From NCBI RefSeq assembly GCF_000001735.4, contig NC_003071.7, positions 2,987,001 to 3,051,000 of the forward strand: 64,000 nucleotides of DNA, given 5' to 3'. Below, piece by piece: positions 28,706-58,267 of this stretch. The stretch's first letter is position 1. Every line of letters begins with the position of its first letter. The translations under genes and the position numbers were made by a program. This stretch comes from Arabidopsis thaliana (taxonomy: Eukaryota; Streptophyta; Magnoliopsida; Brassicales; Brassicaceae). The notes below the pieces were generated by a model, which saw only the letters and a list, made by a program, of their open reading frames with translations, did not search any database and was not told the DNA's origin.

Positions 28706-28777
28706 CCTTGCTTTTCTCTGTAGTGACAGTGTTTTTGTGGGTGTTGATTTTGTTGTTAATTATCTTATCAGGTTATA

Positions 28778-36999: not shown

Positions 37000-37320
37000 A
37001 AATAAACGAGTCATTCGTGAAGAATATTGTTTACATATATAATATAAATCGGTTGGGTACGATCTTTTCGTGTCAAAATATCCGCTTTAACATTAGCTAC
37101 TAAAGATTAAAGATAAAGAATACCTTGTGAACTCATCATTGTCGCTCTGTAACTCCTCCAAATACACTAAGAAAGTTGTTCATTCGGTTGGAAAAGACAC
37201 CATCTACACCAGATTTGAACAGTCTGTAAGAACAACTACATCTTGGTTGTCGGCACCATTCATACACTTCATCGTACAAAGAAGAGCTTCCACCTCTGCA
37301 TGTAGTAGTGGAAATTGATT
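37000..37320 (-). pseudogene. RNase H-like (RVT_3) domain fragment
   Basis: The reverse strand reads HAEVEALLCTMKCMNGADNQ followed by VVVLTDCSNLV, then VYLEELQSDNDEFT, and after a frameshift ANVKADILTRKDRTQP. These are the conserved blocks of the plant RNase H-like domain found at the end of LINE proteins and as orphan genes in Brassicaceae: HAE with the catalytic Glu, TDCS with a catalytic Asp, and ANxxAD with the last Asp. A TAG follows the second block, a TGA comes further on, and a frameshift follows, so it is dead. No reverse transcriptase lies beside it. Confidence 0.65.
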
Positions 37321-39024: not shown

Positions 39025-39397
39025 AGTTATATATTTGATACCCGAAATTCACATGTCGTCTATAACCAATCTAAAATACGAAATATTTGCATGTTAGGAC
39101 ACTTTATTTAAAATTTTAATCATTTATAACACTTCCCAAAACTGGCACACTTTTTGATCTTATTCCCATCTTTTCCGCGTTTACAATTACCGTAACACCC
39201 TTGGCGGAAGTTCAGTCGTCCAACCGAAAACCAACCCTAACCGGTCCTCATCACTTTACTCTTTTTTACCTTATCCACCATCTCTTGAACATACCCTTCT
39301 CGATTCAAATTAGTGCGCTTCTGGTAAAAGCCATAATCCACCATACTCGGTTATTTTCTTTCAATTCTTCCGTGGTCTCCCTTCATTTCTGTCAAAA

Positions 39398-42300
39398 ATG
39401 GCCGAAATTACCGAAGATCCTAACATAGTTCCACCAGTCGCTACCTTAACAGGTAAATAACTTTAACCTAGATTCGTTTTGTCACTCTTCTCTGTCGTTT
39501 TCATCTTCTATAACTAAACAACGTTTTAAATTGTTCAGGCAAGGCTGCTTTTCTTGATCCCGTTTTTTGGGATAATGATTTGCCACCACGGTTGTACGGA
39601 ACCATACGTTACCCAGACGCTCGACTTAATGTATATTCCAAGTTTGATTATCTATGTTTCATTAAGAAACATATGGAAGGGACACATGAGCCTTAATGTA
39701 AACTCTGGCACTTCCTCTTACAGACCCTTCGGACGATATAGTTATATTAGACTGGGATAATGTGTGGATTCCTCGTCAATCCCGTCTCCTAGCTGATGTT
39801 CATGCTGTTGAACAAGATCGTGATGTATGATTCAATTTTTTTTGTTTTCCCCATTTTGTAGCTTCCCACTTTCTTCATTCATTTCTATGTAATTGCAGGT
39901 AACTGAGGAGTCTCTAATCGAAATGGGGAACGCCAGTTTGTATGAGTAGGATGATGAAGTTAGGGACAAGAAGGTGTCCTATATGTTAGAGAAGATTCAA
40001 TCGGGTTATGGGTTTGCAAAGTATGAATGGCCTGGTGGCGTCATGTCTTTGGACCTTATTGACATTGTTAAGGTTAAGAAATCTGTACCCCCCCCCCCCA
40101 TCCCCCTTCGAAGACTCGTTCCAACAAGAAGAAGAAGATGAAGCCTTTGTTGAATTCTCCAAAAGGCTCAGTCAAACGTAGAAGGTCAACCCATCTCAAT
40201 CCTGACTTACCACCATCTCTTTCACAAGATTTGGCTGCTCGTGTTGATTCTCTTGAAAATAAAATTGGTGTTCTTAAAGCTCAACTAAAGAAAGTCAGCG
40301 ACCGTAATACACTTATTCAGAACAGGTTTAGGGACTCTAGATTCCTACATGCTACACGCAGAGCAAAACCCTCAATGTTCCGCTTCAAGAAACTCGTCCG
40401 TAACTCTGCTTCAGAAACAACCTCAAGATTCATGCATGCTAGATGGAGAGCAAAACCCACCTTTCTTCGAGAGCTCTTTGGAAAGGATACTGGTGAACAA
40501 GATTGGACTCATTTTGAACATCCGTTAGGTGGTCTTGACCGTAACTCTGAACCACAAGTACTGAACTGGACTCATTTTTTGGTTATTTCCACCCTCATGT
40601 CAAGCACTTTATAGGCTCCTTCATAACATTGCTATTTTCGTTTAGCTGTCTAGTCGTCTTGATGATATTCAGGTATGTTCATTGCTCTCATCACTCTCTT
40701 ACATGTTGCGTGTGTTTTACTAAGCATAGAATGTCTTCATCTATGTTTTTTTAGATGGAAGAAACAATAGAGTCCTTCAACACCGCACTCACTGAACACC
40801 AATCTGAAAATACGGACAAAGAGGTAAAAATACTAGTTACTCTGTTTAGTTTCATTATAGTAGTTCTTCCTTTGGAAATCTTAAGGAACAATCCCCCAAA
40901 GTTGTATACTTTTCGATTTACTTTCAATGTTTCACAAGTACAAATATGTGTCTCACTCCATTCTCTCATATATGACAGTCTGAAGAAGTTGGACTTGATG
41001 TACCAACTGTTATTTCTCAACCTCTTAAGGTAGTACATCACATATACATTGTCTTTGGTACATCAAACTATATATGCAAACTGATATTGAATATTCCATT
41101 CTGATTTTTCTCTAGGTTTCACCTGATGTGGTTCCTGAAGCGTCTGAACCCCCTCTATCTGCTCAAGTTGTAAATACTGACCTTCTTGATCTTATATCCT
41201 ACTACTTGTTTCATAACTGTATTTAGTTATAACTCCACTTCCATCTTTTTGCATACAACAGGATAAACCTCAAGAATTCCCTTCTGTGGATATCAATATC
41301 GTAAGTTGTAAATGAGTCTTTGCTAAACATTGTATCCAAGCTTGAGAGTTAATTATTTAATACAACATTGTATCCAGGCGGTTTGGTCTATTTTACATTC
41401 ATGTTAGAGATGTTCATTAATATTACTATTTTTAAATTTATTGACTTTTCCAGGGTCTTTTGAATGATGGGACATTAAACCGAGAGATTGAATTTCCTGA
41501 GGTACCATTTAAGAAAATAAATGATTGAGTAATCATCCTAATCTTTTATTTGAGGCATCCCCTTTAAAAAAATAAATGATTGAGTAATCATCACAGAGAT
41601 TGAATTTCCAGGGTATTTTACACATTGACCTCCGGTGTAGACTATTTTTAACACTTTTAGCTTCTGTTGTGTTTCTATATTTTCAAGAGGATTCATTTTT
41701 GTCATTTGAAAAATAAAAGACAATACAATTTTACAATTTGTTAATTTTAAAATAATTAATGTTTCTTTTTCTACTCACCACTACATTCCTGATGTGCATG
41801 AATAATTGTTACTTTCATGTATCAGTCAGATTTGGTCATGGATCCATTTATCTTTCCTGTTCCATATCATGTTTCACAGTATCAGCCTAATGGTGAACAA
41901 GTGTTCAAGACCCCAATCCATAATCAGGTACATCATACCATTCCAAATACATATACTTTATTTTTACATTGTTTTTGCATAAGTATTATAAATACACCAC
42001 AATGTAAGCACCCGTTTCAAATATCCTTAATGGAACATGGGATGAAGTGCTGTCCTTCTGTTCAACTACTGTAAGGCATTTTCTTTTGGCTTATCCACAT
42101 TAATATGTTCATATGTCCAGTTTTTTTTGTATTCTTATCCATTTTTGATTGTCCACTATGCATACTATATAAGCATTCATAATGATTATACCTGGAATTT
42201 GATTCAATTCACTCATATCCTCCATCAGAAACATCATTTGCTATAATACCATACCTTGGGGTTTGTGATGCTCTATTAATGTTATTACTTATTATAATAC

Positions 42301-42910
42301 TGCACTATCTCGGCCAGATTGTCATGCTAATGATTCTGTATGCTTTGATAGTTTTCTGGATCTTCTAGTTTTGTTGTTGATCCCCCTATATATGATACTG
42401 AATTGAAGCCCAAGGAATCTATTTTCGACACCGAAGATAAGGCCCACAACAAGGAGACAAAGCTTGTTGCTACATTATTCATTACCTAACAGATGAGCGT
42501 TACTGTTTTTTAAAGTTTTATTTATAGGATACGGCCAGTCCATTGGATGGAGAAAAAGAAATGCTCAAGCCTCTAGTCCTTAGTGACTCATCCCCTGTAA
42601 GGCCGAGAGACCTAACCTTATTGGATCAAGAAGAGGCTGGATTGGTGTCTACCTTTATTAATAGGCCTCCTATTGACATTTTCAAAATTTTGCCCTCTAA
42701 AGATGATCCTGACTGGCCGTCCTTCCAACAGATTCTTTCCAAATTTCCAGACACGTAAGTTTCACTTCCCCCTTTCATTTTCTTTATAAATATCTTAATA
42801 GTAGGATCTAATCCTTTTATATAGGGAGCATCTTTGTCCTGATGGAGGCCTTGTAAACAACTCTTTTATCTTGGATATTGTCTTGCCTCAAAAATGGATT
42901 GATCACAGAG
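39398..42910 (+). pseudogene. DUF1985-type gene of MULE-4, lacking DUF1985 core and Ulp1 domain
   Basis: Exon 1 (39398-39452, MAEITEDPNIVPPVATLTG) joins exon 2 (39539 on), which reads YPDARLNVYSKFDYLCFIKK, the usual lead-in to DUF1985. The frame then ends and the next exon (from about 39723) is already past the domain (DDIVILDWDNVW), so the core is deleted. Then come DEVRDKKVSYMLEKIQSG and WPGGVMSLDL, with TAG at 39946-39948 replacing Trp, a basic segment RRRSTHLNPDLPPSLSQDLA (40138-40614), and a series of short acidic exons to about 42905 ending with LPQKWIDHR. In relatives a C48 peptidase domain follows that point. Here repeats and the RPA-like gene follow. Confidence 0.6.
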
Positions 42911-42954
42911 TATGTAATCCTCGTTTCTTTCAATCAATAGTTTCGACAACTTGT

Positions 42955-43570
42955 TATTTTATGGGGTTCGTATTTTATGCTGATTTAAACTTAGGTTTTA
43001 TGCATTTTTCCCCCTTTCATATCGCTATCATTTAAACAAATATGTACTACCAACCGTTTCTCTACTGGATATTAATCTGTAACTATCTATGTGGATGATC
43101 TTTTATGTTCACAGTGTCATACATTTTTATATTTAGTATCTTCCCAAATACATACAAAGACATTGTACATTAATTCCTCAGAGAACTTTCCTTAGTAGTT
43201 CAGAACACTGTTCACGGTGGATGATCGGTTATGTTCAAGTTGTCATTCATTTTTATTTTCTGTTCTTTACCTCTCCCCCATTCCTTTTCAGGATTCGATC
43301 AACTTTTTATTTTATGGAGTTCGTATTTTTATGTTGATTGAAACGTATTTTTTATGCATATTTTCCTTTTTATAGCTATCATTTAAACAAATGTGTACTA
43401 CCAACCGTCTATGTACTGGATTTTTATCTGTCGTCTTTTCAACTATATATGTGGATGATCGCTTATGTTCACCGTGTCATACATTTTTATATTTATTATC
43501 TTCCCAAATACATACAAAGACACTATACATTTATTCCATGGTGTACTTTCCTTAGTAGTTCAGATCAGTC
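42955..43570. repeat. Direct duplication of about 250 bp, two copies
   Basis: Sequences at about 43005-43205 and 43365-43565 share CTATCATTTAAACAAATNTG, TACTACCAACCGT and ATCTTCCCAAATACATACAA in order. Both end in TTTCCTTAGTAGTTCAGA. They lie between the DUF1985-type remnant and the RPA-like gene. Confidence 0.85.
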
Positions 43571-43797
43571 CCACCCCGTACTTTGAATGGCAACCAATCA
43601 TTGAATTATGCACCCTCTCAGTTCGCCTCCTTTCATTCCAACTTCTACCGTTTAGGATTCCCAATAAACAAACCTTTTCACTTTCTATAAATCCCTTTTG
43701 CTATTTCCCCTAACCCAAGACAGCCCCACCACTAACCGTAAACCTACATATTTCTCCATTATCATTTGTACCACACTCGTATTCGCCTCTGTTCATT

Positions 43798-44763
43798 ATG
43801 GAAAACTACCACCGTTTGTACGAGTTGTCTCCCTTAATAACTGGTTGGACGATATGTGTTATGATTCTTCGGATTTACAAGAAAATGCTAAATGATCACT
43901 CCTTTGAATTGCATCTTATCTTGCAAGATGAAGCGGTAATAGTTTATTTGTAATCTTTGATTTCATTTTCTGTTGATTTCGATGCGTAATATAATACGAG
44001 TGTTTGTTTTATTAGGGCAAGAGGATAGAGGTAACAATTGGAACTCGGTTTTCTGCTTTCTATTATGACAGGCTCATAGAGAATCAATGGAAAATGATCA
44101 GTACTTTCCTCGTGCGGCCTAATTCAGAATGCATAAGATCCACTCCCCTTGAGTTTCGAATCTTTTTTTTTGTAGCAAACCGTTGTTACTTCATCATAGC
44201 CGAAGGGAACCGTTTTACTTAACAACTTTACTCCATTTGATTACATTCTCGAACACTCAGTTCGGAAAGATACTCTGGTTGGTAAGTATTACCCTATTTT
44301 CTCATGATATTTCTCCAAATATTTACTTTAATATTGACTTACACTTAATATTTGTCTCAGACTTGCTTGGGGCACTCATTGATTTCGACTGGCTGACCAA
44401 TAGTGCGCCAAATGGGTCCGATATGGACGGATTCAAGCTTCAATTCAGGTTCATCGATAGCAAGTACTTTTCTTCACTACCTTTTTATAGGGTTTTCTAT
44501 TTATTTTTATTAACTCTGTCCACATAGATTCACCATTTACAGCCAAGATATATTGCAATGCGAGGCACATGGTGAATATGCAGTTGATTTAGAGAAAAAG
44601 TTTCGTTCCGTTCGGAACAACAAAGTAGTTATTGCCCTCGCCTTTTGGAAAATTGTTACGTACTTTGATGGTGGTCACCGTATGAAGATCGCCAGCCATG
44701 CGCCTATATCTACTGTTTATCCCGATCCAGATATTGAGCCAGTCAAAGAAATCAAAATGGTAT
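43798..44763 (+). pseudogene. RPA70-like OB-fold gene of MULE-4, copy 1
   Basis: Exon 1 starts MENYHRLYELSPLITGWTIC and ends LILQDEA at the GTAATA donor (43936). Exon 2 (from about 44016) continues GKRIEVTIGTRFSAFYYDRL. After a T-run frameshift near 44165 and a TAG near 44196 it reads NNFTPFDYILEHSVRKDTLV up to 44282. The third exon (about 44363) begins DLLGALIDFD, and the last (about 44528-44760) ends with VVIALAFWKIVTYFDGGHRM and PISTVYPDPDIEPVKEIK. This is two consecutive OB folds of the DUF223/RPA1-like family, predicted to bind single-stranded DNA. Only two lesions are seen. It aligns block by block with the reverse copy at 53107-52240. Confidence 0.7.
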
Positions 44764-44849
44764 GTATTTACTAATTCGAAGTTTCTTTGTAAATTCATTT
44801 CTTGTGTTTTAAAAGTAACGTTAGGCTTCTGTAATTTTCCCTTAGGTTG

Positions 44850-45440
44850 TCTATTAAATCTGGATATATCGAGTGAAGCCACCGTTCATGGATAATGTCT
44901 TTTTTTTTCATTGCTGTCCAAATGTTTCCGAACACAATTATGTGTAACGAACCTTTTGATAATTTATCTTCCATGTATTCGGATATCATTTTAATATAAC
45001 TGCCTAAGTTCCTTAATATTATGAAAGTCGTGAATAATGGTTCGACCTTATATCTTCCAAATTATGTTTTACATAATATAATCAAAAGTACTACATCAAC
45101 AGAACCATAAACCACGTCGATTCAATACAATGTTAATATCGAGTAAATCAGGATATATCGAGCCTAGCCACCGTTTTATGGAGTATGTCTTATTTTTTCT
45201 TCATTGTTGTCCACATGTTAGCGAACACAATTATTTCGAATGATCTTATGTTAATTTCTCATCAATGTTTTCGGATGTCCTTTAAATATATTTGGGAAGA
45301 ATATTAGTTCCTTTATGTTATGACAGTCATGAATAATTATTTGTCTTTAAATCATCCAAATTATGTTTTGCATAACATAAACAAAAACCCAACAACAACG
45401 TCGATTCAATACAATCGATTCACACACATCGTGAATATGT
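44850..45440. repeat. Tandem duplication of about 289 bp
   Basis: Copy 1 starts GGATATATCGAG at 44862 and copy 2 at 45151. Both continue with GCCACCGTT, GTCCA.ATGTT, CGAACACAATTAT and CCAAATTATGTTTT.CATAA. They are diverged but clearly collinear. Confidence 0.8.
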
Positions 45441-45860
45441 TCTTTGAGCTTGCTCTCCTTTCCAACAGTTAGTCTTCTATGATCACCAAATGATCTTCCT
45501 CTCTTTAAACATTTATTCTTCATACTTGTTGTTGTTTCCAAAAGTTTTTGGTCATTGTTTTATGTTCAGCTGCTATAAAATTTGTTTATGATATAATTTT
45601 CTGGCAATAATGTTGGTCTTTTGTCTTTTCATTGCTACAACTCTGTCTCTAGCAAACTTCTTACGATTTTATTCGAGATTGATCTCCCTCCAACAGTAAG
45701 TCTTATACCCACATCAAATGAACTTCCTTTTTTTAAAACATTTATTCTTCATACTTAATAGCATTTCCAATAGTATATGGTCAACGAGATATGTTCAGCT
45801 GCTATGGATTTCTGATACATTTCTCTGTCAATAATGTTGGTCTTCTGTCTATATGTTAAC
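45440..45860. repeat. Tandem duplication of about 230 bp
   Basis: Segments at about 45445-45615 and 45675-45855 share TTTATTCTTCATACTT, TATGTTCAGCTGCTAT and CAATAATGTTGGTCTT. A nearby string (CTCTGTCTCTAGCAA, 45642) also occurs at 48267 inside a reverse F-box-like gene, so this is probably rearranged gene debris. Confidence 0.8.
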
Positions 45861-46132
45861 TCGTTTTCCACGTACATATGGTTACTGTCCCGTCGCCATA
45901 TTTTTCAATTTCGTCTTCATTACTTTAGGGCCATCCCCCTATAAAGGAATACTTATATTACTTTTTCCCTTCTATACTAATATATCAGCTTTACCAAAAT
46001 ATCTTTAAATTCTTATTTTTTCTTCGGATGGAAGTCGATTGGAATCCAACGCAATCTGTAGGGATCTTGTCTATATGTTTTCTTCCTTATTTAGTTGGCT
46101 TACTTTATTTATGCATCATTATTTACTTGCAG

Positions 46133-46640
46133 ATGGCTGTGTTTCGGGAATTTCACATTCCGGTCACCATTCTTGCAAAGATTGTTAGTCTCGTGTCTGA
46201 AAACAGTGTTGATGATTTGAAGGCCTGGATTCAAGCCGGTCGGGAAGGCACTGAAGCTGTGATGTCGAATGAAACGTTGAGTCGAGTCAGGCTTGATAAA
46301 TCTGAACATTCCATATGGTGGACCGTGCCCCATTCTTCTTACCACAAGTTTTTCTTGAAATGCCTTTCTCAGAATAATCCATTAGCCATGTTCGCTTATA
46401 TGAGTAAATCTTGGGCTTATCAAACGTTGGTTAATGCTCACTACCGTTTTGGGCGTTGAGAATCATACAATGGTGGAATTGCAGCTTACAACGAGTTTGT
46501 TGATGGACGCCTCACTCACGAGAGATTAACGGATGTCAAATTTTATGTCTTCCTCCTACTAAACAACGTAGAATGGTTCGACCTAGGTGCGGCCGTTGTT
46601 GTCGGCCAGGTCACATTAGCACGAATTGTACACATGTATT
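46133..46640 (+). pseudogene. F-box-like protein with C-terminal CCHC knuckle, MULE-4 copy 1
   Basis: After an AG acceptor the frame starts at 46133 with MAVFREFHIPVTILAKIVSL, continues with LKAWIQAGREG, VRLDKSEHSIWW and YHKFFLKCLSQNNPLAMFAY, and stops at TGA near 46457. This resembles the small Brassicaceae F-box family around At2g35280 (divergent F-box start, then Sel1-like helices). Beyond the stop, in a shifted frame, MVRPRCGRCCRPGHISTNC gives a CX2CX4HX4C zinc knuckle (about 46575-46632), suggesting the intact protein ended in a nucleic-acid-binding finger. The reverse copy at 49420-48911 has the same arrangement. F-box proteins usually recruit targets to SCF ubiquitin ligases, but that role here is inference. 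Confidence 0.55.
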
Positions 46641-46784
46641 TTATTAATTTTGCAATTTTTGCTACTCTGATAACCTCGACGATATGGTATCATGTTCGCG
46701 GTTTTTTGGTTAACGACTATTTCTGTTTATTTTTATTTTTTTTTTTAACCTTAGTAAAATAATTATATTATTATATGTGTATTA

Positions 46785-47545
46785 AACATTCTTATAATTT
46801 GGCCTCCAAAATATTCACTATATGGATTTAGGCTTTACCATGTTTTATTATTATTTGTTTGTGTGGATAAATCCAAAAAATGGTTGTCCATATTCTTCAG
46901 TATACAGAATGTCTTAGTTATTTAAAGGAATCTCATATTTTCACATTGAATTTCCTATCCACAAATTTGCGTCCACATATTTTAAGTGCAGTAGACTTAT
47001 AAATACCCATATTGACCTGTTACCGAATTGTACATATTTATTAATTTGGCATTTTGTTATTTTTCAACATACTTGAAACGAACTCATGTAAGGGATTTTA
47101 TGGTTAATGACACTTTCTTATGTTTTTATTTAATTGAATAGTTAATTTATTATTTACGCCTATATATACACATCTCGATATTATGTGATAGCAAATGTCG
47201 TTGTCTTCCTCTTTCAATTCGTCCCGGAGGCGTAACAATTCTATAAGGGAGAGCGTTCAGAACAATTTTAGTGCTCATGATCTCAAATGTTTAATGTTTG
47301 CCATTCTGGCTTTTGTATTTGTCGTACTGTTCATTTTATAATTACTCATATTGTTGATTATTCTATTATTTCTTATTAATATGCTACTTTATCTTTTAAT
47401 ATGTGTATTATACATTTTTATAATTTGGCTCTCCAGAATTTTCACTATATGGATTTAAGCATTTACCATGTTTTATTATTACTTTGTTTTTGTGGATAAA
47501 TCCTAAACGTGGTTATCCATATCTTCAGTATATATTAGGTAGTAT
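46785..47545. repeat. Direct repeat pair of about 130 bp in MULE-4 spacer
   Basis: About 46790-46915 and 47405-47535 share TATAATTTGGC, TTCACTATATGGATTTA, TTACCATGTTTTATTATTA and GTGGATAAATCC. Both contain TGTGGATAA. No gene is seen between 46641 and 47759. Confidence 0.8.
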
Positions 47546-47759
47546 TGCCCAGATTTACTTACAAACCTGTTTTTGTGGATAATACTCGATACCATTAACC
47601 ATGTGTTGTGATTTATAATGAATAATGTGATATCTGGATGAGAGTAAATATTACAATATGTCCATCTTCAATTTCATAAAACATTTTTAGTAACTAAAGT
47701 TTCTAAGTTAGACATTATGAGAGTAGTATGATGTCTCTAGACAGATAATAGTAGATACA

Positions 47760-48334
47760 TTGCATACATCGCTCCCCATTGTATTCTTTACGCTGATTAT
47801 GGGAAAACCAACAGTGTGGAAAATCCACGAAATGCCATGTGTAACAGTAGTTTCCGAATCGTTTGGGACCGATTGTGTTTATATGAAACATTAATTCGTC
47901 TGACATTGAACTTATCTCGGAATTTCCAGTAGTTCTTTTCCACAAGCGTGCATGCACAACTTTGTAGCATAATTAGTAATAGAGCCGCGACTAGGTAGGT
48001 ATGTTGTACTTTGTTCAGTACCGAAATAGCTCCATCAAGATCTAAGTTACGGAATCCTAATTTCAGGCTTACAACGTATAGAGCAAAAAGATTTTTGTTT
48101 TTGTTTTAGGCAGGCAGAATAAAAGGCGTAGTAAGTACTAGAACTTTCTGACCATTGGACAAAATTTTCGTTCAGGTCTAGGCGTACGGAGCTTAGAGTC
48201 GCCGGAGAGTAAACCGCTTTTTTACCGGCCCTTCTTGTGTTCATCCAACTTTTCAATACATCAACTCTGTCTCTAGCAATAATGCTTACGATTTTATCCA
48301 AAACATCTTGGTTTATATCTACAATATTCCCCAT
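47760..48334 (-). pseudogene. F-box-like protein, MULE-4 copy 2 (reverse)
   Basis: From ATG 48334 after a CTGCAG acceptor: MGNIVDINQDVLDKIVSIIA, LKSWMNTRRAGKKAVYSPAT, VRLDLNENFVQW, YAFYSACLKQ. A frameshift near 48080 leads on to SLKLGFRNLDLDGAISVLNK and LVEKNYWKFRDKF. The second half shows the helical repeat part of the family, including the stretch matching ECC-type inserts in intact relatives. No zinc knuckle is visible at the end. The start has the same exon boundary as copies 1 and 3, so all descend from one gene structure. Confidence 0.5.
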
Positions 48335-48910
48335 CCGTTTCTGCAGTGCAAATATGTAAGAGTTTAAACCTAGCATGAAGCAATTATCGCATTATTAATA
48401 AATCAAGGTTTGAGTTATGTTTTGAACCAACCTTCTTTCCCATTGTAACAACTCTTGGCCGTACACTCGTTTCCTGTTAGAACGTATAGAACGTCTATCA
48501 CTATATTTTCTTTCTTCCTTGTACTCTCCCTTTTGCACAATGATGGTTTTCTCACTTATATTTATATATGTAACTTATTGATAACTGTAATTAATATTAC
48601 TGTTTTATGGATAATAACCATGACTCCTTGTTTTTGTAATTATTCTGTTTCATTTTAGTTATATTAGGTGGTTACTATGGATGTTATTTTTATAAAACCC
48701 AGCTTACTATATGGTCAAGATTAAAATATGTTAACAGTATGGTTTACTTTGTTGTCAATGAAATATTTGTAAAAACAGTCGTCAATGACTTTGCCTTTTA
48801 GATTGTAACAGATTCAAACATTCGATGATGTCTTAGCCATTGTACAACGTTTTTAATAAAACCAACTTAAATTGAATAATCTAGTTTTAGACGATGTCTA
48901 ACACAAACAC

Positions 48911-49420
48911 CTAACCAAACCTCACTGGACACATATGTCCGTTTTTCTTGCAAATAGGACATTTTGGCCTGCCAGCTCTCTTCAATGGTGGGTTTGTAAC
49001 TAGCTCGCCAATAAATGGATCTTCCATACAAAGTCGACCATCTATGAACTCCATATACGCTGATAAATCTCTGTTGAAGGAAACCCATCTCCCTAGTCGG
49101 AAGCATTGTGTCATCAATTCCTCGTAAGCCTATCCCTTACTCATTTCGGTAAAGACGGCGGCAGGGTTACCTTCGGTTAGGCATTTTTTGTAAAATTTAT
49201 GGTACGTTGAGTGAGGCATGAACCACCAAATAAAATGTTACGATTTGTCAAGTCCCACACGCTTTAGTGTCTCTTTCGACAAGACAACATCCTTGCCTGC
49301 ATGACCACTTCGAATCCAACTTTTCAAGTCTTCTACACCGTTTTCCGAAACTAAACTAACGATTTTAGCCAATAATTCCGCTGGCATGTGGAACTCCTGC
49401 TTTCTTTGTAACTACACAGT
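48911..49420 (-). pseudogene. F-box-like protein with remnant CCHC knuckle, MULE-4 copy 3 (reverse)
   Basis: Reads EFHMPAELLAKIVSLVSENG, then VEDLKSWIRSGHAGKDVVLS, a TAA replacing a codon after LDKS, FIWWFMPHSTYHKFYKKCL, a second stop after MSKG, then FNRDLSAYMEFIDGRL and GRPKCPICKKNGHMCP. The end fits CX2CX4HX4C except that the last Cys is Arg. It is the closest relative in the window of copy 1 (46133), in opposite orientation. Two in-frame stops and no large deletion point to single-base decay. Confidence 0.55.
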
Positions 49421-49429
49421 AATATTCCA

Positions 49430-50105
49430 TCGTCAACATAAGGATAATAAACTTGCTTATTAAATAATTCACGATGTCAGCTTACCATTCACCCACTTCT
49501 GGTTCGTTCCATTTTCCTGTTCTCCATTTTCCGCCGATGAAGAAAATCTTGAAACTTCTGCTTACTAATGGCAAAAAGTTAGGACGAAACAATTTATAAG
49601 TATTTTTTAACCGTGCTATATTTTTATATTATTTCAGGCTGTTTGACCACATGGATAATTTACTTTATTTTCCTACATGTTATATATATTCACTGATATA
49701 GGGAATTATACTATAAATTTATATTTAATAAGGTTTATTATATGGACAACTATTATCCGGGTATGTGTGATATCCATGTGGTTTGAGTGCATAATTTTCC
49801 TTTTCTAGTTATTATAAATTTTATTTCTATTATTCATTTCTATCGTTATCTCTTATCAGAGTAAACTACACATACTCCCCAATTATGCTCATTCAGTTCA
49901 CCTCAGTCTATTATATAATTCTACAAATATTATTTGAACATGTTGATAGAGAACGAAGTATAAGCTCAAATATATAAGATCTGAACATTTGTACGCATCC
50001 TCGGATATTCATTTCCACTATATATATTATTATTTAATTTAATAGATCAGGGATATCCTTAGGTTCAGTGAAGGATACCTACAATTTTTTTTTTAAGTCC
50101 TTCTA
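49430..50105. other. MULE-4 spacer
   Basis: AT-rich, with CACATGGATAATTTAC and similar GGATAA/TTATCC words. It probably includes the promoter of the F-box-like gene at 50106, but no specific element stands out. Confidence 0.35.
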
Positions 50106-50726
50106 ATGAACCCCTTCATTCCAATTCCGCTGCTCTCTGACATCATTAGGCGGATCGGCCGTCAGGGTTTCCGGGAGCTTGCTCCTTTCATCGCCGCTGG
50201 TACCGTTTGGCTGGATATTGTTTATAGTAATGAAGTTTTAGTCGATGTTTGTCTGGACAAGTTTATATTCGTCTGCTCCCTCGCGAATGTTGGATCTCCT
50301 TGTCGCCCATTCCTACTTAGGTGTTTGGCTGCTCAAAACTACACCGCGAAATACGTTGAACGGTTAAGACGTTTGGCTCAAGAAGGCCCTTCCATATCAT
50401 CTCTCGATATGGTCAGGGAAGCCGCTCTTCATAGTAATTATGCCCGATTTGCATTCGGTATATTTCTAAAATGTTGCGGTTCTCATACCGAGGGTAATAT
50501 GGTACTACAAACATTTCATCAAAGGGTTCCTATTTTCGAGGAGGCAGAATATATCGTGGATCAGGTGATTACCCAAATTCGAGACATGGGGACTCCAGGT
50601 TGCGGTTACTACATGGGTTTCAGGGGTGCAATAGATATCCCAGAGTGTAGGCTTCAGCATTACACTGGTGTTTGTCCTTTGTGTTTCTCAGTTATGTATG
50701 TATTTGAGGTCAGAATGCTTTGTTAG
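50106..50726 (+). CDS. F-box-like protein, intact 206-codon frame (MULE-4 copy 4)
   Basis: An uninterrupted frame from ATG 50106 to TAG 50724-50726. The N-terminus NPFIPIPLLSDIIRRIGRQG is the divergent F-box-like start. It is followed by LVDVCLDKFIFVCSL, RPFLLRCLAAQNYTAKYVER, a helical middle (SLDMVREAALHSNYARFAFG, FHQRVPIFEEAEYIVDQV) and a C-terminus with CRLQHYTGVCPLC. The same domain order appears in copies 1-3, but this copy is longer and has no stop or shift. It lies inside the cargo of MULE-4 and is the only clearly open cargo gene. Whether it is expressed, and whether its F-box binds SKP1, cannot be judged. The GC content of the frame is higher than its flanks, as expected for a gene under selection or recently captured. 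Confidence 0.6.
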   Translation: MNPFIPIPLLSDIIRRIGRQGFRELAPFIAAGTVWLDIVYSNEVLVDVCLDKFIFVCSLANVGSPCRPFLLRCLAAQNYTAKYVERLRRLAQEGPSISSLDMVREAALHSNYARFAFGIFLKCCGSHTEGNMVLQTFHQRVPIFEEAEYIVDQVITQIRDMGTPGCGYYMGFRGAIDIPECRLQHYTGVCPLCFSVMYVFEVRMLC

Positions 50727-50804
50727 TTATCGTTGTTGTAGTTTGAGTAAGCAACTAATAACCAACCTTCAATGTTTAGTTTACTTCCCGTCTTGCCAAA
50801 TACA

Positions 50805-51387
50805 TTATGCATACATATATTTGTTCCATTTTGTAATGTAAGAAATTAATAAAATGACGACCAAACCAGCAACTATAATATTTCCAAACTCTTTTGAAAT
50901 CCCTGCTTTCTTCCCCCCGATTTCCTTTTTTAATAAAGCGACAGTAGTTTGATGTTGTGTGTGAAGTTCAAAAAGTTGCTCTATCTCTTCCTTGTGAGCC
51001 TCTATTCTTTCACGCATTTTTTCCATCTTACTTCTTCGCATCCTCTCTGTCTCGTCCTCCATTTCACACCTTAACACTGTTGCCTCCTCCATCATTGCCT
51101 CATCCCATCATTTTCCGATGTGTACCTCTCCATCTTACTTTAAAAGTTTGGTTTCTATATACATATATACAATTTTGCTAAATATTTTTATACAACTAGC
51201 TCTTTAATATTCTTTACCTCCACCAACTCGCATGCATAATACCTTCTTCCTGAGTAATTTCTTCCAGATGAATGTTTGATAATCGTTGGTGCTCCACAGT
51301 AGCATTTTTTTTTGGAATTCCATACTCACTGTTATTACGGCCGAAGTTTGGCCTATCCACAGATCTAGAAGAACTACTGTCAGACAT
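50805..51387 (-). pseudogene. GRF zinc finger, coiled-coil, membrane-anchor protein, MULE-4 copy 1
   Basis: From ATG 51387: MSDSSSSRSVDRPNFGRNNS, then in an A-run one base is lost or gained and the shifted frame reads KCYCGAPTIIKHSSGRN and GRRYYACELVE, a GRF-type zinc finger (CxCG ... GR.YY.C). After an intron the second exon (about 51120-50805) has DGEVHIGK-stop-WDEA, then a strongly charged coiled coil (MRRSKMEKMRERIEAHKEE) and a C-terminal membrane segment NIIVAGLVVILLISYI. Such GRF/coiled-coil/TM proteins of about 120-150 residues are a known plant-specific family of unclear role. Two lesions make this copy dead. Confidence 0.6.
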
Positions 51388-51389
51388 TT

Positions 51390-52235
51390 TTCTTACTCTT
51401 TTGTTCCCTTAACCGAACTAGTCAAAACTACTTATACTGATTTATAAATCATAATTCCGTTAAAGTGTTGTTGATAATTCTTGTCCATCATGATATGCGT
51501 TCATAATTAATATATATTTTAACCACATGTTCGCTATCATGGATCGTCTGTATAAGTGTCATTTTGTTAGTACTCGTTGCTACAATATAATATTATTCAA
51601 GCGTACCTCTTGGGAAGAGAGTTAATCATTTCACTTGGGAATATATACTCCCTTTCACATCATTTTGAATTTTAAGAAGAAGCGGTCATACAGTAATAAT
51701 AAAAACGAAGTATAATTACCCCTAAACATAGGTTTATCATTTGATATCTACTGCTGTTGTCTACTGGTTGTGTTATACGCAACCTTGACGTACAATGGAA
51801 CCACCACTTGACGATATAGTAATTTAATTTTGCTGGCTAATTATCACCACATTAAATTTTTTGGCGAGATATGGAAAGTTATATAATATAATCAAATTGT
51901 AGTTTAACATACGTATCCATATGGATCATGTTAATTATTTTAGATGAAGGGGACATAAATTGATCCATCGAAACCATTTCTTTTTCCAAATTCGTAAAAC
52001 CAGCATAGTTAAAGTTGTGGATCAAGTCTGTACTAAGAGATACATAACAAAAAAATTAAAATAGCCGAATCACAAACATTCACTTCATAGTCTTAAGTAG
52101 TTCATTGTAAGACTTCAAAAAACTTTCCCAATCTTCACTCCTTAATCTTCACTCCACAACCTATGAAATTGATTTAAGTGTATGAGGTATTTCTTTATTT
52201 TTAACATAACTCAAAAGTATTGATGTTATAAAAAT
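51390..52235. other. MULE-4 spacer
   Basis: AT-rich and no gene seen. It is the region between a reverse GRF gene and the 3' end of a reverse RPA-like gene. Confidence 0.35.
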
Positions 52236-52239
52236 TTAC

Positions 52240-53107
52240 TTACCATTCTAATCTCATCCACTTCTTCAATGGATGGTTCCGGGGTAAACAGTTGATACGC
52301 CTCCATAACTCACGATCTTAACATTTCCTTCGACTGCTGATAACTTAACCACCCTCCACCACCCCAGCGCCACAACGATGTTAGGTCTTCCGAACTGTCG
52401 GTAACATTTCTCAAATGTAATAGCAGTTTTCCCCACAGTATCACAATTTAGAGTTTTTTTGCTGAATGTTGTTAGAGTGATATCATTACGAGAGTATATA
52501 TTGAATGTAAAAAAAACATGGGCAGTGAAAAAACGTACTACTTATCCATGATCTTGAAAGGAAGTATCACCTCCTCACCACCCTCATCTACATTCCCTGT
52601 GTGAGTCAGCACACCAACTTCAACAATGGCTCCAAGCAGGTCTGTTGTAAAAAATTTAAAACAATACTGATTATGATTGTTAAAACCAAATAGTCAAAAA
52701 CAAATACGGAAAGAAACTTACCAACTAACACTTCAGTATCATAAGTTTCCTCCAGGATATAGTCGAATCGAGTTAAATTGTTGAATTGAACAGTAGGTCT
52801 TGTATCAGCTGATGTCAGTTGTTCTTTTCAAGTTTTTCGAAATAGTAAGCTGAAAACCTACGGTGAATTACAACTTCCATGCGCTTTCCCTATTTAAAAT
52901 TTACTCCATATTAGAAATTTACTCCAACGTTGAAGTTTTGAATAAATTTTATGTTGGAAAAATCACATACCGTTTCATCCGCAACGATTACCCTTAGTTC
53001 GAAAGAATCGTCCCTTTCGTACTTTTTGTATTTCCTCATGACGGTAACTCTTACTGTCCATCCACTGAGTTAGGGGAGATTTCGTGTAAGAGATGGTATT
53101 TCAACAT
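52240..53107 (-). pseudogene. RPA70-like OB-fold gene of MULE-4, copy 2 (reverse)
   Basis: From ATG 53107: MLKYHLLHEISPNSV, after a one-base shift GWTVRVTVMRKYKKYERDDS up to VIVADET at the GT donor (about 52968). Exon 2 (about 52890) reads GKRMEVVIHRRFSAYYFEKL, loses an internal stretch, then NNLTRFDYILEETYDTEVLV. Exon 3 (about 52640) is DLLGAIVEVGVLTHTGNVDE. The last (about 52470-52240) has TAITFEKCYRQFGRPNIVVA and GGVSTVYPG, then TGA. Block order and intron positions equal those of copy 1 at 43798-44763, on the other strand. The internal deletion and the shift mean it cannot be functional. Confidence 0.65.
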
Positions 53108-53109
53108 TT

Positions 53110-53900
53110 ACTTCTTTTTTCAAGGTTACAAATAAGTATTAGGATTTCGTTAGTTATATACTAAACAAGGATATATATACAAATAGATATAAGTATTACC
53201 GGTTTACCGTATAATATACCAATCAACATTAATATTTATTTATCCGATTATATTTAATCATCAGAGCATATTTTACAAGTTTATGTTCATTTTTGGATTA
53301 TTTATCCACATGGTCAGGATATTTAGTTTTCTTAAAAGCATATTACCAATTTAATTCACATTTTTTTTTATTATGTTTTTAACAACTATGTTGCCCTTAT
53401 GAAATTCACATTTTGTCACATTTTTAACAATTTAATTCACATTTTTTAACAACTATATTTAGTTCATTTTTATTTTATTTTTTTAACAACTATGTTGATC
53501 ACTTATGAAATTCGAAACTTAAACTATATTAAAGGCTAATTTTTGATTAATATATTAAATTAAAAGAGTATTTTACATTTATATTTCTCACTTACTTAGA
53601 GGCTCGTAGTTTGATGGCTTGTTTTCTTTGAACGTATTTTGGTTATCCACATGATCAACATTACATATTTTCAACGTACAGAATATTCAGTTTTTAAATA
53701 TCTATTATGTTCTACTATATCAATTTATTAAAGTACAACATATAAAAATCTTTTATCGAATTTTTTCCACTAGATATATGTTCCGCGCTTTATTTTTGGT
53801 TTTATTTATAGGTTTTATAGTGTATCCACATCGCCAAAATAAGTTATTTCCAACAAACATAATATCAAACAACAATAACTTACACAGCCGATCACTCACT
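53110..53900. other. MULE-4 spacer with TTATCCACATG words
   Basis: AT-rich, no gene. Contains TTTATCCACATGGTC (53301), GGTTATCCACATGATC (53641) and GTATCCACATCGCC (53822). Confidence 0.4.
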
Positions 53901-53904
53901 CGAT

Positions 53905-54432
53905 TCATCCTTTCACTTTGTTCAAACCAATGATAAGTATGCAACATACAATGACAGCAATTGACATCTTTTTCATGCTGGCTTTCGATTCCAACAGTTT
54001 GTCATCTAGCCTCTTCACAATTTCATTATCTAGCTTAATTTGCATCTTATCAAAAACAACTTTCTCCTGATTTATACTTACAGCAATAAACTGGGACATT
54101 GTTTGTTTAAGAGCATTCGTTCTTCTAGCCAATCTTTTGATCTCATCAATCATTGCTTCGTCAACCTATTTGAAAGTGTGGTTATCATCGATCAGCTTGA
54201 AAATCAATTAATTAGCATATGAATTTGTTATAATCAAACAAATTTTCATTCACATTACCTTATGTCCTGCAGCATAAGCACAACGATAGTAACGTCTGTA
54301 TGGATTCGTAGCTGACTTGGATATTAAGGCCGAGATACTAGCTCCACACCAACACAATTTCGGCACACTCTCAACTCTTCTTCTCTAACAGACATTTGAA
54401 GTTCCACTTGTAGCTGCTAATGAATTACTCAT
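53905..54432 (-). pseudogene. GRF zinc finger, coiled-coil, membrane-anchor protein, MULE-4 copy 2
   Basis: From ATG 54432: MSNSLAATSGTSNVC, an in-frame TAG, then RVESVPKLCWCGASISALIS and NPYRRYYRCAYAAGHK, a GRF finger with CWCG and YYRC. A GT donor near 54258 and an acceptor near 54166 join exon 2: VDEAMIDEIKRLARRTNALK, a coiled coil with KLDNEIVKRLDDKLLESK, and the C-terminal membrane segment MSIAVIVCCILIIGL, ending at TGA 53905-53907. Apart from the single stop the gene is intact, and it keeps the family's exon layout better than copy 1. Confidence 0.65.
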
Positions 54433-54985
54433 TTTTTAGCTCAATTTGGGAAATGGTTAAGAATACTAGAAATTAGGGTTCTATGATTTTGGGGATTCTT
54501 GAAGTGGTATTTATTTCTATTGGGGTCACTTATATCGGGTTTGAATTTGGTTTAACTTTGGTTTATTATATTGGTTATTGGTTTGCTCTCTGGGACAGTA
54601 AACCAACAATAAACCCCGAAAATTCATTCTTTGGGGTTCCATACGGACTTTATATTTAGAACTTTATATTTCGAGGCTTTAACCATATGGTCGACCTTAA
54701 ACCATATGGTCGACCCTGTTTTCTTAGTGTTCCACAATTTTTACCTTTTTTCATTATCTATTATGAAATTAGCAACTGATACTATAAAAAGGCTAAATAG
54801 GCATTAAAAACAATTTAAATTGTCTTGAAATAAGAATTCATACTGTATCATGATCCTCACAATGGAGCATCAATAAAACATCCGGTACGCCGAGTACATA
54901 ACCAAACCTACCCAATGGTTGTTCAAAAAAATTTTAAACCATTTAAAGGTTCTTCATTATAACATGGAAGATTATATAGGGTTGC
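54433..54985. other. MULE-4 spacer between GRF gene and transposase 3' end
   Basis: Includes the duplicated phrase ACCATATGGTCGACC at about 54682-54715. No gene seen. Confidence 0.4.
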
Positions 54986-54989
54986 TGCA

Positions 54990-57872
54990 ACGTGCTCTGT
55001 TGTGTCCAACCCCTTTGCAACGCGAACATCTTATTTGGTTTTACCTTGGCAACCTTCACTTTTCTCTGGTCATTCATAGACAAGTGTTAAATTCGTGAAT
55101 ATATGTTCAAGCGTAAATTTAAATTAATTACCACACTTACAGGGAACTCTCCTATGGAAGCTATTCTTTTTGCCTTTCGCCTACCCGACGGCCTCCTTGT
55201 CCTTGGTGGAAGAATCACACGTTCCTTAACTTCTTCACTTTGATCTAACTCTAAGGCATTAGCCTCAGGGTTAACAATGCCTTTGTAAGTTAAAACCCAT
55301 GTTTTGGTTTTGAAACATTCCCCAACCAAAGTTCCAAAATCAAGCCCTATACTGTTAGCTGCAAGCATGGCATGACCGCAAGGAATTTTTAGTTTATCAA
55401 AAACTTTGCAGCTACATTTCATATCATCAAAAGAAACCATGTGATTCCCTCCGAAACGCCCAACAATCTCATATGTCCAGTTTGTGACATTTTGGATTTT
55501 GCTCCCTTCCATTTTCATCATAGTCTGGGCCATCACCTTGTCAACGTAAGGTTGCACCATTCCTGTATGTTTGATAGACTTTTTCCTTCGGGCTGAACAC
55601 CATCTGGTTAACATAGCCCTAATAAACTTCACCAACTCCAAAATAGGTGCACATCTCCCTAACCGTATTGCATTGTTTAGAGTTTCTGCAATATTGCTCG
55701 TCATCAAATTATACCTCTCACCTTGGAAATACACCCTACTCCAACGGGCTGGTCCAATCTTCTCCAAATATTTGTCACATTCATAATTTCTTGATTTTAT
55801 TTCTTTGTATAGATTCCTAAAGACACTCATCTTGTACACACATCCAACATTCAACACCATCTTTGCTAATCCTTTGCTCTTATATCTTGATGTAACATTT
55901 CGTTGGAGATGGACTATACATGCTCCCTGGTGTGCTAGTGGAAAAACTCTGCTTTTTGCAACGTATAGGCTTGGATGTCTATTAGAAATTATTGTTAGTG
56001 TTGCACTGTCATCAATAATTCTCTCTACCTTCTACATAAACCAAGTCCAAGCCTCGTCCATTTCACTATCCACTACAGCAAAAGCCAGTGGGAAAACTTG
56101 ATAATTTGCGTCTTGTCCGCTAGGAGTCAATAAGACCCCTTATATTTCCCGGTCAGATGAGTCCCGTCCACAACCAAAACCCGTCTCAAATATCTGAAGC
56201 CCTGGATTGAGGCACCAAATGCCAGAAACATATAAAGAAAACGTTCATCACCATTTTCCTCAATATCTGTCACAAGGTCTGTCATACTACCTAGGTTTGT
56301 CATATTACCTAGGTTTGTCATCTTTATAAGCTCCATATATTCAGCTAATTTGGTGAAGCTATCATCATCCTCCCCTAACACATCAACTACTGCCTTTTCC
56401 CTAGCCCTATAACACTTGCTATATGATGCAGACACTCTTAAATCTTCAAGAATCAGCTTTTGCAAATCCATCGGGACAGGTCCTTTAACAGGCTCACTAT
56501 ATTGTGCTTTATACACAGCTGCTATCACCCTTGAAGTTGCCTTCTTCTTGTACATTTTCCGAGTTTCCACAGAACAAGTATGGTCTAGTTTAGCTTTGCG
56601 TATCTCATAATATCCACTCTCAGGCATTTCATGAGCTGTTACCCGCCAATCACATTTCTCATCGGCACAGTTTAAAACAAATGAATCAAGTTTTGTGCGT
56701 GTTTGTTTGAAGTGAAACATATGCCTAATAGCATATATAGCTAATCCAATTTGGCAATCCGACTTGCTAGCATAAACTTTTCCTTTATATACATCTTCAC
56801 CGTCAGCCCTATCTATATCCGGCATTATGGCAGCTTCATACTCCGTGTCATCAAACAGAGGAGGAATATCAAACTCTTCATCGTCCACATCCGACAGCTT
56901 CCTATTTTCTCTTGCAGTTTCATTTGTATTACAATCACCTGTTCTATTGTTAACAACTTTTCCCGTTCCACTGCTGTTTGCAAGTAAATCAGTTGGATGC
57001 TTAATCGAAGACGTTATCAAATCATCAATTTCCATGTTCGAACCTGCACCTTCCACACTGGCCACCAATTCTGTGTCTACTGTTGGTGACGCAAATCCCA
57101 TTCTAACATCAGCATCTTCTTCCCCGACACATATTATATCCAATGCATTTGAGCCACCCATGTCCTCATCCAAGAATGGGCTCCAAAACTCCACATCATA
57201 AGATTGGGGTTTTACTTCTATAATCTCATCCCAAGTAAGATCTTCGCTTCCTTCATCCACTAGATCTTCATCATCAAGATCTTCAGATAAAATTTCACTA
57301 ACAAGAGGACCTCGTTCACAACCTATAACTCTTTCTATAGTTTCAAGTTCTGCAACAAATTCTTCATCTTCGGAGGACAGCAAAAATTCTTTCAACCCGA
57401 CCTTCGATATACTATCTTCTGATCCACATAAACGTTTCGACTTATTCCCTCTTCCGTCATCTTCCTTAACTGAACTGGTCTTCACTAGCCCACCGTCAAC
57501 CTCAGAATTGTTTAAAACTCTTTTACAAGATGTTCCAAACTTTACAAACATGTTGGTTCCAACATTTGCTTCCAATATCTTCATAAAATAACTTAGCCCC
57601 ACATCAGTCGTCACGACGACCGGTGGTGTTTTATCTCCGGTGGTAAAATCTCTTATATTTGGGGTACAGAAGCTTAAATCAACCTTCGTACTCGTTGAAA
57701 TTCCAAATTCTACTCTAATGGCTTCCACGAATTCTGATAGCTTAATACCTTTATATACAGGCACAATTCGAGATTTCATTACCTTATTAACCTCAACATA
57801 CCACTTCTCATCCTCCTCGCAATTCCAATCCCCGCATATTACATAACAGAAGCCATCCTCAGTTCCCTGCAA
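54990..57872 (-). pseudogene. MuDR/MULE transposase of MULE-4, nearly complete
   Basis: From ATG 57872: MQGTEDGFCYVICGDWNCEE opens a 200-residue N-terminal region (plant-Mu N-terminal domain, then a long acidic linker). The MuDR region has CDWRVTAHEMPESGYYEIRK, and the DDE core has RRVLVVDGTHLTGKYKG (about 56160). A one-base loss near 56137 and a TAG after TWFM (near 56038) interrupt the core. The second catalytic position reads ISNRHPSLY, Asn instead of Asp. Then TSNIAETLNNAI, a SWIM finger CSCKVFDKLKIPCGHAM (about 55370-55420), GRRKAKR, an intron after 55143 and a CCHC knuckle CSRCKGVGHNRARC (about 55003-55050). Three tandem MTNLG-type hexapeptides lie near 56300. Confidence 0.8.
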
Positions 57873-58267
57873 TATATAAATTTTTTATCTTAGACAGTCA
57901 ATAATATATCAGCGAATATTTTCTACTATTGTTACCAATCCATTTTTTCTTACCATCGTTATGATATCTTTGTTAGTTGCTTCAAACTTCAGAGCTTCTC
58001 TTTCTTTTGTTCATCGTCATTCAAACTTCGATGACATAGTTATTCGTTCCATGCTTTCTCCGGTTTGCAAAAACAAAATAAACCGGTTTCCCCAAACTCT
58101 TACCCTAAATAACCGATTTTACTTGATTTAATTAATAGGGTCAATTAAGTCTTTTTCCCCCTTATAATTGATCACCCTTATAATTGATCAGAAGTGTGCC
58201 TGTCGGCAAAACTTTTGCTCAACATGTTTTCGAAAGTGTATGATAATGCAAATCACCCTTAAAATAT

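What the first reader, a model, noticed from the sequence alone, without database searches (positions are those of the whole stretch)
39080..58258. A 19.2-kb Mutator-like element that carries an RPA / F-box / GRF gene cluster
Seen: 9-bp flanks CTAAAATAC and TTAAAATAT differing only by two C/T transitions, degenerate terminal repeats sharing ATTTGCAT, ACACTTT and GGCACACTT..TGATC in order, and inside them a DUF1985 remnant and a transposase in the usual convergent layout. Between these lie two RPA70-like, four F-box-like and two GRF/coiled-coil/membrane genes. Known: MULEs can capture gene fragments (Pack-MULEs) and carry Ulp1-type genes. Three foreign families in multiple copies with introns are more than usual capture. 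Inference: the families entered by one or a few captures and multiplied within the element, and may serve it (DNA binding, targeting of host proteins for degradation, membrane or nuclear-envelope anchoring).
Basis: partly seen in the sequence, partly recalled or inferred. Interest (0 to 1): 0.9.

Follow-up and report, generated by a model that had tools for sequence, protein, structure and literature searches.

The report
Plant jumping gene carrying many helpers
A dead 19-kb Arabidopsis transposon of the VANDAL (Mutator-like) kind carries RPA-like, F-box/TPR-like and zinc-finger genes that look less like chance passengers than like a helper gene set shared by more than two dozen related transposon loci in the same genome.

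Summary
At 39080-58258 lies a decayed VANDAL-type (KAONASHI-like) MULE: a 5' terminus found at two other places, a 3' terminus resembling that of sister elements, 9-bp flanks with two mismatches, a broken transposase, a DUF1985/KIU remnant, two DUF223 (RPA-like), four 'F-box-like' and two GRF/coiled-coil genes. The interpretation needs changing: the cargo did not enter this one element and multiply there. Of 44 loci with related transposases, 30 have a DUF223 match within 15 kb, 34 an F-box-like match, 28 both, 8 neither (shift null: at most 8, 8 and 7). A sister at C1:12713488 carries transposase, DUF223, three F-box-like genes, Ulp1 and DUF1985; a C4 locus (nearest listed transposase about 15 kb off) has GRF too. 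Cargo genes show dN/dS mostly like the transposase. VANB of VANDAL21, of unknown function, matches the GRF profile. Ten searches of an open-licence library showed no description of this set; two key papers are not held. Most likely the proteins are helpers that work beside VANC/KIU; their biochemical roles are inferred and F-box activity is not shown. New variant of a known kind.

The parts
39071..39079 (.). left 9-bp flank CTAAAATAC (putative target-site duplication)
   Evidence: read directly; 2 mismatches to the right flank
39080..39161 (+). 5' terminus (GAAATATTTGCAT...)
   Evidence: same start at C5:14075967 and C5:17978245
39399..42930 (+). VANC/KIU-type gene remnant: start and C-terminal side of the DUF1985 gene, DUF1985 core deleted at 39683/39703, then the lead-in to an Ulp1 domain that is itself lost
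   Evidence: 82-83% DNA identity to C5:14075967-14078234 up to 40752, whose ORF holds DUF1985 E=2.4e-33; 42528-42909 matches three sisters, in one of which, C5:11.01M, Peptidase_C48 follows directly
43020..43567 (.). two-copy direct repeat (spacing 351-360 bp) after the KIU remnant
   Evidence: the repeat finder D1, D6
43798..44771 (+). RPA-like gene 1 (DUF223 family), in exons, 63-64% aa identity to the C5:14.17M copy in its three better matches
   Evidence: tblastx to C2:4604272 and C4:2840637; DUF223 E=5.3e-43 in the C5:14.17M relative; own search
46133..46456 (+). F-box-like gene 1, in-frame TGA at 46457
   Evidence: 71 genome places, itself included; stop read
47797..48391 (-). F-box-like gene 2 (two overlapping frames)
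49088..49399 (-). F-box-like gene 3, two in-frame stops
   Evidence: 59% aa to gene 1
50106..50726 (+). F-box-like gene 4, open frame
   Evidence: 114 genome places, itself included; 48% aa to C4:2844393-2845010
50805..51388 (-). GRF/coiled-coil/membrane gene 1; only itself found in the genome
   Evidence: own translation (GRF below cut-off)
52229..53091 (-). RPA-like gene 2
   Evidence: tblastx to C4:2839639-2840620 and C2:4604-4608k
53906..54432 (-). GRF/coiled-coil/membrane gene 2, in-frame TAG at codon 16
   Evidence: relatives C5:15084463 and C5:5218007
55087..57884 (-). MULE (VANA-type) transposase, frame broken near 56.1 kb
   Evidence: Pfam; own search
58177..58258 (-). 3' terminus (GGGTGATTTGCAT... 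read inward)
   Evidence: 10 of 12 terminal bases shared with the ends of C1:9004836 and C1:12713488; weak inverted similarity to the 5' end
58259..58267 (.). right 9-bp flank TTAAAATAT
41285..53830 (.). candidate anti-silencing target motif TATCCACA, 10 copies (41285, 42092, 46862, 46956, 47491, 47574, 51354, 53303, 53644, 53823)
   Evidence: 10 versus 1.1 expected; 3 in 44.8 kb of flanks; third in the list of enriched words

Best explanation
39080-58258 is a decayed member, without a second full copy found, of the VANDAL / non-TIR, KAONASHI-like branch of Mutator-like transposons in Arabidopsis thaliana. Its cargo is the inherited accessory gene set of that branch: DUF223 (RPA-like, single-strand-DNA-binding type), an array of F-box-like/TPR_27-type genes, a GRF-finger/coiled-coil protein of the VANB type and DUF1985-Ulp1 (VANC/KIU), beside the transposase. 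Shown: linkage, recurring order, near-identical multi-gene copies at different places, low dN/dS for most genes. Inferred mechanism: VANC/KIU binds element-specific motif arrays and lifts silencing (as published for VANC21 and VANC6); the transposase cuts the ends; the DUF223 protein coats single-stranded DNA at excision or gap-repair intermediates; the F-box-like proteins act as adaptors that mark host silencing or repair factors; the GRF protein tethers DNA or the complex, in some copies through a membrane anchor.
For: Linkage: 44 transposase loci; 30 with DUF223, 34 with F-box-like, 28 with both, 8 with neither; 1000 shifts of up to 1.5 Mb give means 2.7, 2.7, 1.7 and maxima 8, 8, 7. Whole sister: C1:12713488 onward, transposase, DUF223, three F-box-like genes, Peptidase_C48 (E=6e-70), DUF1985 (E=6e-19); the copy at C1:9004836, 97.7-98.8% identical as far as fetched, with the same terminus and other flanks, lacks one 4.28-kb block, the F-box trio. 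C4 locus: DUF223, two F-box-like genes, GRF (PF06839 E=9.4e-11, one splice joint judged by eye), Peptidase_C48 E=1.2e-21. C5:14.17M, C1:12.83M and C4:10.54M are 98.8-99.3% identical over DUF223 and F-box-like genes; the first two 98.9% over the transposase side. dN/dS: transposase 0.21, 0.22; DUF223 0.16-0.21 in four of six comparisons; last F-box-like gene 0.19 twice; KIU 0.20, 0.33. GRF profile hits VANB21 at 32.1 bits, best of 300 shuffles 8.1. The motif method gives the published VANC21 motif as top 8-mer of the VANDAL21 region.
Against: No second pair of these two termini was found. One transposase pair at low dS gives 0.48, two DUF223 exon-2 comparisons 0.48 and 0.61, the F-box-like gene before DUF223 0.35 and 0.39. 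20 of 68 F-box-like loci lie near neither a listed transposase nor a DUF223 match. The C4:10.54M copy has no listed transposase near it, and ends of the three near-identical copies were not compared, so duplication by other means is not excluded for them. The C4 locus was fetched only from 2839001 to 2848000; that it forms one element with the transposase at C4:2822667 is inferred. GRF1 finds only itself; GRF2's nearest relatives are not near the listed transposases. No F-box domain was detected and the fold searches are undecided. In the fetched 10 kb of VANDAL21 no DUF223 match was found; that stretch does not reach all of the element. The steps proposed for DUF223, F-box-like and GRF proteins are untested.
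Confidence: 0.77

Rival explanations
1. One reading: host genes were captured by this one element and multiplied inside it (Pack-MULE-like, then amplification).
For: The best TPR_27 matches of the genome lie away from the listed transposases and are probably host F-box genes (recalled), so a host origin at some time is likely. GRF1 finds only itself.
Against: The same families sit beside transposases down to about 40% identity, with similar order and F-box-like arrays; multiplicity is older than this element.
Confidence: 0.07
2. Composite: two related VANDAL elements nested or fused, one giving KIU and RPA-like 1 (family-A layout), the other RPA-like 2, GRF and transposase (family-B layout).
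For: RPA-like 1 is on the plus strand far from the transposase as in family A, RPA-like 2 on the transposase strand as in family B. The 3' end has no second copy; similarity to the best 5' relative stops at 40752.
Against: The C4 region 2822667-2846114 also holds DUF223 matches on both strands, both F-box-like types, GRF and Ulp1. The candidate motif lies on both the KIU side and the cargo side. I saw no inner terminus, but did not search for one systematically.
Confidence: 0.18
3. No functional tie: genes and transposons merely share the same chromosomal neighbourhoods.
For: Many of these loci lie in the same broad stretches of the chromosomes (coordinates).
Against: Local shifts give at most 7 joint loci against 28 seen; near-identical multi-gene copies at different places.
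Confidence: 0.02

Closest known systems
VANDAL21 / Hiun (VANA, VANB, VANC)
   Same: MULE transposase, DUF1985 VANC gene on the opposite strand, a dense short motif (YAGTATTAY, PMC5735166 passages), and a GRF-type coiled-coil gene: VANB21 fits the profile of the window's GRF genes
   Different: no DUF223 match in the fetched region and no F-box-like match listed there; three genes published (passages); VANB of unknown function in PMC6446971 (passage)
KAONASHI (KI) MULEs
   Same: Ulp1-type gene in reverse orientation to the transposase, as stated for KI-MULEs in PMC2528002 (passage); sisters carry Peptidase_C48
   Different: the review PMC13317346 (passage) speaks of three coding genes; here DUF223 plus several F-box-like genes and GRF; the window copy has lost the Ulp1 catalytic domain
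Pack-MULEs
   Same: MULE with host-like genes inside
   Different: Pack-MULEs are non-autonomous carriers of gene fragments (recalled); here a transposase gene and a family-wide gene set with low dN/dS in most comparisons
Helitrons with RPA genes
   Same: a DNA transposon carrying an RPA-like gene; Helitron RPA stated in PMC7385966 (passage)
   Different: here the transposase is MULE-type; Helitron ends and Rep/helicase were not searched for

Membership tests
Mutator-like elements (MULE) | MuDR/MULE-type transposase | tested here: met
   DBD_Tnp_Mut, Transposase_mut and SWIM over cut-off in the window; MULE domain 18.0 bits, below its cut-off of 27.6; MULE E=7.7e-24 in a sister
Mutator-like elements (MULE) | 8-11-bp target-site duplication (PMC6446971 passage) | tested here: inconclusive
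   9-bp flanks with 2 mismatches; chance rate 184 of 63,991 positions
VANDAL (non-TIR MULE) | absent, short or degenerate terminal inverted repeats | tested here: met
   62.7% of 75 positions at the ends; not above the best AT-rich windows elsewhere
VANDAL (non-TIR MULE) | VANC-type gene with DUF1985 | tested here: inconclusive
   core deleted in the window, present in the 82-83% identical copy
VANDAL (non-TIR MULE) | dense element-specific motif in non-coding parts | tested here: inconclusive
   TATCCACA 10 versus 1.1 expected, P about 0.009 after correction for 8-mers, but only third in the list; no binding data
VANDAL (non-TIR MULE) | VANB gene | tested here: inconclusive
   VANB21 matches the profile of five GRF genes, two of them the window's, E=3.8e-9 in a small test set; Pfam gives VANB21 no GRF hit; that VANB defines the family is not established
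KAONASHI (KI) MULE | Ulp1-type peptidase domain | tested here: not met
   only its lead-in remains in the window; met in sisters
Pack-MULE | non-autonomous, no transposase of its own, recently captured gene fragments | tested here: not met
   own transposase gene (broken) and family-wide genes
RPA70/DUF223 family | DUF223 domain | tested here: met
   E=5.3e-43 in a family-A relative; the window copies by homology only
At2g35280-type F-box/TPR_27 proteins (name recalled) | TPR_27 domain | tested here: inconclusive
   10 places of this family, all also, are over the cut-off in the genome scan: 6 near a listed transposase, 2 near a DUF223 match only, 2 near neither; 8 of 14 aligned members weakly; neither of two window proteins tested
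SCF F-box adaptors | F-box domain that binds Skp1 | tested here: inconclusive
   no Pfam F-box hit; confident N-terminal helices at 10-50 but fold search undecided
GRF zinc finger | PF06839 | tested here: inconclusive
   window copies below cut-off (15.9 and 13.9 bits); C4 relative 42.1 bits, over cut-off, with a splice joint judged by eye

The most novel reading that the evidence does not exclude
KI-type VANDALs are multi-gene transposons with a conserved helper operating system: a SUMO protease/anti-silencing factor, a private RPA-like single-strand-binding protein, up to five diverged F-box-like adaptors per locus and a membrane-tethered GRF protein, which together free the element's DNA, remove host silencing or repair proteins through the ubiquitin and SUMO systems, and steer its repair, more like a large DNA virus than a two-gene transposon.
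Probability: 0.25. Interest if true: 0.88.

Novelty: new variant of a known kind. Interest (0 to 1): 0.64.

Why it matters
Plant DNA transposons are usually seen as a transposase with at most one or two helpers. A branch that keeps DUF223, F-box-like arrays and GRF genes for long times, in recurring order and mostly at low dN/dS, would mean a transposon with its own toolkit for handling single-stranded DNA and host proteins, next to the known anti-silencing factor. It also gives a first structural clue to VANB, the VANDAL protein of unknown function, and makes the question testable in a model plant where VANDAL21 can be mobilised.

Tried and rejected
Terminal pairs elsewhere: the 3' 161 bp has no second DNA match; the C5:14075967 copy shows homology to 40752 only and no convincing far end or duplication; the far end of the C1:12713488 element was not found. 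Family-A ends from alignment edges were unclear. F-box fold: not decided by Pfam, PDB sequence or fold search; no F-box structure is among the rows shown. A DUF223 sequence search of PDB gave nothing. Host capture by this element and chance neighbourhood were rejected. Empty sites and other accessions could not be tested: only this genome is held.

Paper searches for the gene set: (open-licence library only). Not held when looked up: PMC3773815, the VANC paper of 2022 and the KI-MULE paper of 2006 (the first DOI recalled). What I saw: passages of PMC5735166, PMC13317346, PMC6446971, PMC10398659, PMC2528002 and PMC7385966, and one short section of PMC5735166; other papers as listings only.

Of 180 DUF223 matches only the listed rows could be used. 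F-box-like rows are those. The places were retyped by hand from the outputs. All these searches score only their best candidates, so counts are lower bounds; the C4 GRF gene, for one, was not in the list.
Full report
What was checked. The window is G000:C2:2987001-3051000 of a 119.66-Mb genome. Genome size, the named protein hits and the VANDAL21 locus point to Arabidopsis thaliana; this is inferred. The left flank CTAAAATAC and right flank TTAAAATAT differ at two positions. The 5' start GAAATATTTGCAT occurs at two further places, C5:14075967 (83% over 161 bp) and C5:17978245 (90% over 70 bp), with flanks that read as unrelated, so 39080 is very probably a true terminus. Two reservations: the C5:14075967 match starts 6 bp outside, and a 73% repeat lies left of both copies, 1.8 kb and 95 bp away. 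The 3' terminus has no DNA-level copy, but its first 12 bases read inward match 10 of 12 with the transposase-side terminus of two sister elements that are 98.8% identical over 5.5 kb and have other flanks. The inverted repeat is too weak to stand alone: 1 of 5000 shuffles reached it, yet some windows nearby scored higher.

Gene content of the window element. From left to right: a DUF1985/KIU gene remnant (+), RPA-like 1 (+), F-box-like 1 (+), 2 (-), 3 (-), 4 (+), GRF 1 (-), RPA-like 2 (-), GRF 2 (-), transposase (-). The transposase is in two frames with DBD_Tnp_Mut, SWIM and Transposase_mut over cut-off; the MULE domain stays below its cut-off in this decayed copy. Several genes carry stops: F-box-like 1 ends at an in-frame TGA, gene 3 has two stops, GRF 2 has a TAG at codon 16. 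The DUF1985 core and the Ulp1 domain are deleted. The element is therefore a fossil.

The cargo is family-wide. With the element as DNA query, matches to its transposase and to RPA-like 1 came in pairs 5-12 kb apart at ten places. The F-box-like 1 protein has 71 matches, F-box-like 4 has 114. The transposase of a C5 relative finds 64 places, 44 loci after merging the 58 starts used. Within 15 kb, 30 of 44 have a DUF223 match, 34 of 44 an F-box-like match, 28 of 44 both and 8 neither. Shifting each locus by up to 1.5 Mb, 1000 times, gave at most 8, 8 and 7. In the other direction, 48 of 68 F-box-like loci lie near a listed transposase or DUF223 match and 20 near neither.

Layouts. Family A (C5:14.17M, C5:11.01M, C1:16.95M, C2:4.60M): F-box-like genes around a DUF223 gene opposed to the transposase, with KIU-like ORFs upstream in the last three; Peptidase_C48 was shown by Pfam for C5:11.01M. 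Family B (C1:12713488): transposase, DUF223, three F-box-like genes, Ulp1 gene (E=6e-70), DUF1985 (E=6e-19). A second copy at C1:9004836 is, as far as fetched, the same element without one 4.28-kb block that holds the F-box trio. A C4 locus, fetched only from 2839001 to 2848000, holds DUF223, F-box-like types 1 and 4, a GRF gene over the Pfam cut-off and an Ulp1 gene. The nearest listed transposase, at C4:2822667-2824349, lies about 15 kb away; DUF223 and F-box-like matches lie beside it, and the stretch between was not fetched. The window has RPA-like 1 in the position of family A and RPA-like 2 on the strand of family B, so a composite origin stays possible.

Mobility and selection. Family B gives the clearest case: one terminus, different flanks, and transposase with DUF223 98.8% identical in two places. 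The C5:14.17M, C1:12.83M and C4:10.54M copies are 98.8-99.3% identical over DUF223 and F-box-like genes, the first two also 98.9% over the transposase side. Their ends were not compared, and C4:10.54M has no listed transposase near it, so this fits recent movement with cargo but does not prove it. Nei-Gojobori dN/dS: transposase 0.21 and 0.22, one low-dS pair 0.48; DUF223 0.16 to 0.21 in four of six comparisons, 0.48 and 0.61 in two at low dS; last F-box-like gene 0.19 twice; F-box-like gene before DUF223 0.35 and 0.39; KIU 0.20 and 0.33. Window against relatives: DUF223 0.09 over 51 codons at near-saturated dS, F-box-like 4 0.36, F-box-like 1 not computable because dS is saturated. Most cargo comparisons thus indicate purifying selection, several as strong as on the transposase.

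VANB looks like a GRF protein. In the VANDAL21 region (DUF1985 E=5.8e-30) the gene between VANC and the transposase, which by position is VANB21, carries a CxCG...RYYxC stretch and a coiled coil. A profile of five GRF genes scores it at 32.1 bits against 8.1 for the best of 300 shuffles, while Pfam gives no GRF hit. Its search gives 30 matches at 18 loci.

Motifs. An 8-mer enrichment gives AGTATTAC as the top word of that region, the core of the published VANC21 motif YAGTATTAY, which serves as a positive control. The C1:12713488 element has ACGTACAC, 31 seen against 0.6 expected. The window element has TATCCACA, 10 against 1.1 expected and 3 in 44.8 kb of flanks; it is third in the list after CCCCCCCC and ACCTAGGT. 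It occurs on both the KIU side and the cargo side, which suggests that they belong to one element.

What the proteins are. DUF223 is certain in relatives (E=5.3e-43). Ten places of the F-box-like family are over the TPR_27 cut-off, six near a listed transposase, two near a DUF223 match only, two near neither; no F-box domain is found. The AlphaFold model (mean pLDDT 71, pTM 0.54) has a confident helical N-terminus (blocks 81-94 for residues 11-60) and a helical rest, and fold searches give only weak TPR-like matches.

Verdict. A known kind of element, VANDAL/KI-type MULE, in a variant with a large recurring helper gene set that ten searches of an open-licence library did not show. Two key papers are not held, so priority is uncertain.

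Noticed in passing
window 26737-35171: Arrays of a TTTTAAAATCCCTTGTAAA-like motif at spacings such as 32 and 84 bp (17 CCCTTGTAA on the plus strand), like the motif arrays of VANDAL elements; a GGGAGATTTGCA terminus-like word lies at 27409(-). Possibly another VANDAL element left of this one.
   Followed up: partly
window 37011-37309 and C5:14075582-14075872 (L002): A 73% identical repeat lies 1.8 kb left of this element and 95 bp left of its sister at C5:14075967: shared insertion surroundings or an older element.
   Followed up: no
C5:17978245 (L003): A 70-bp stub with the same 5' terminus (90%); nothing else of the element matched in the 3 kb held.
   Followed up: no
L057, C2:10005112-10005684: VANB21 of VANDAL21 looks like a GRF-finger/coiled-coil protein; its function is reported as unknown.
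   Followed up: yes
C4:1847088-1850944: A VANB21-like gene and an F-box-like gene of type 4 lie about 3 kb apart, perhaps another element type that mixes both.
   Followed up: no
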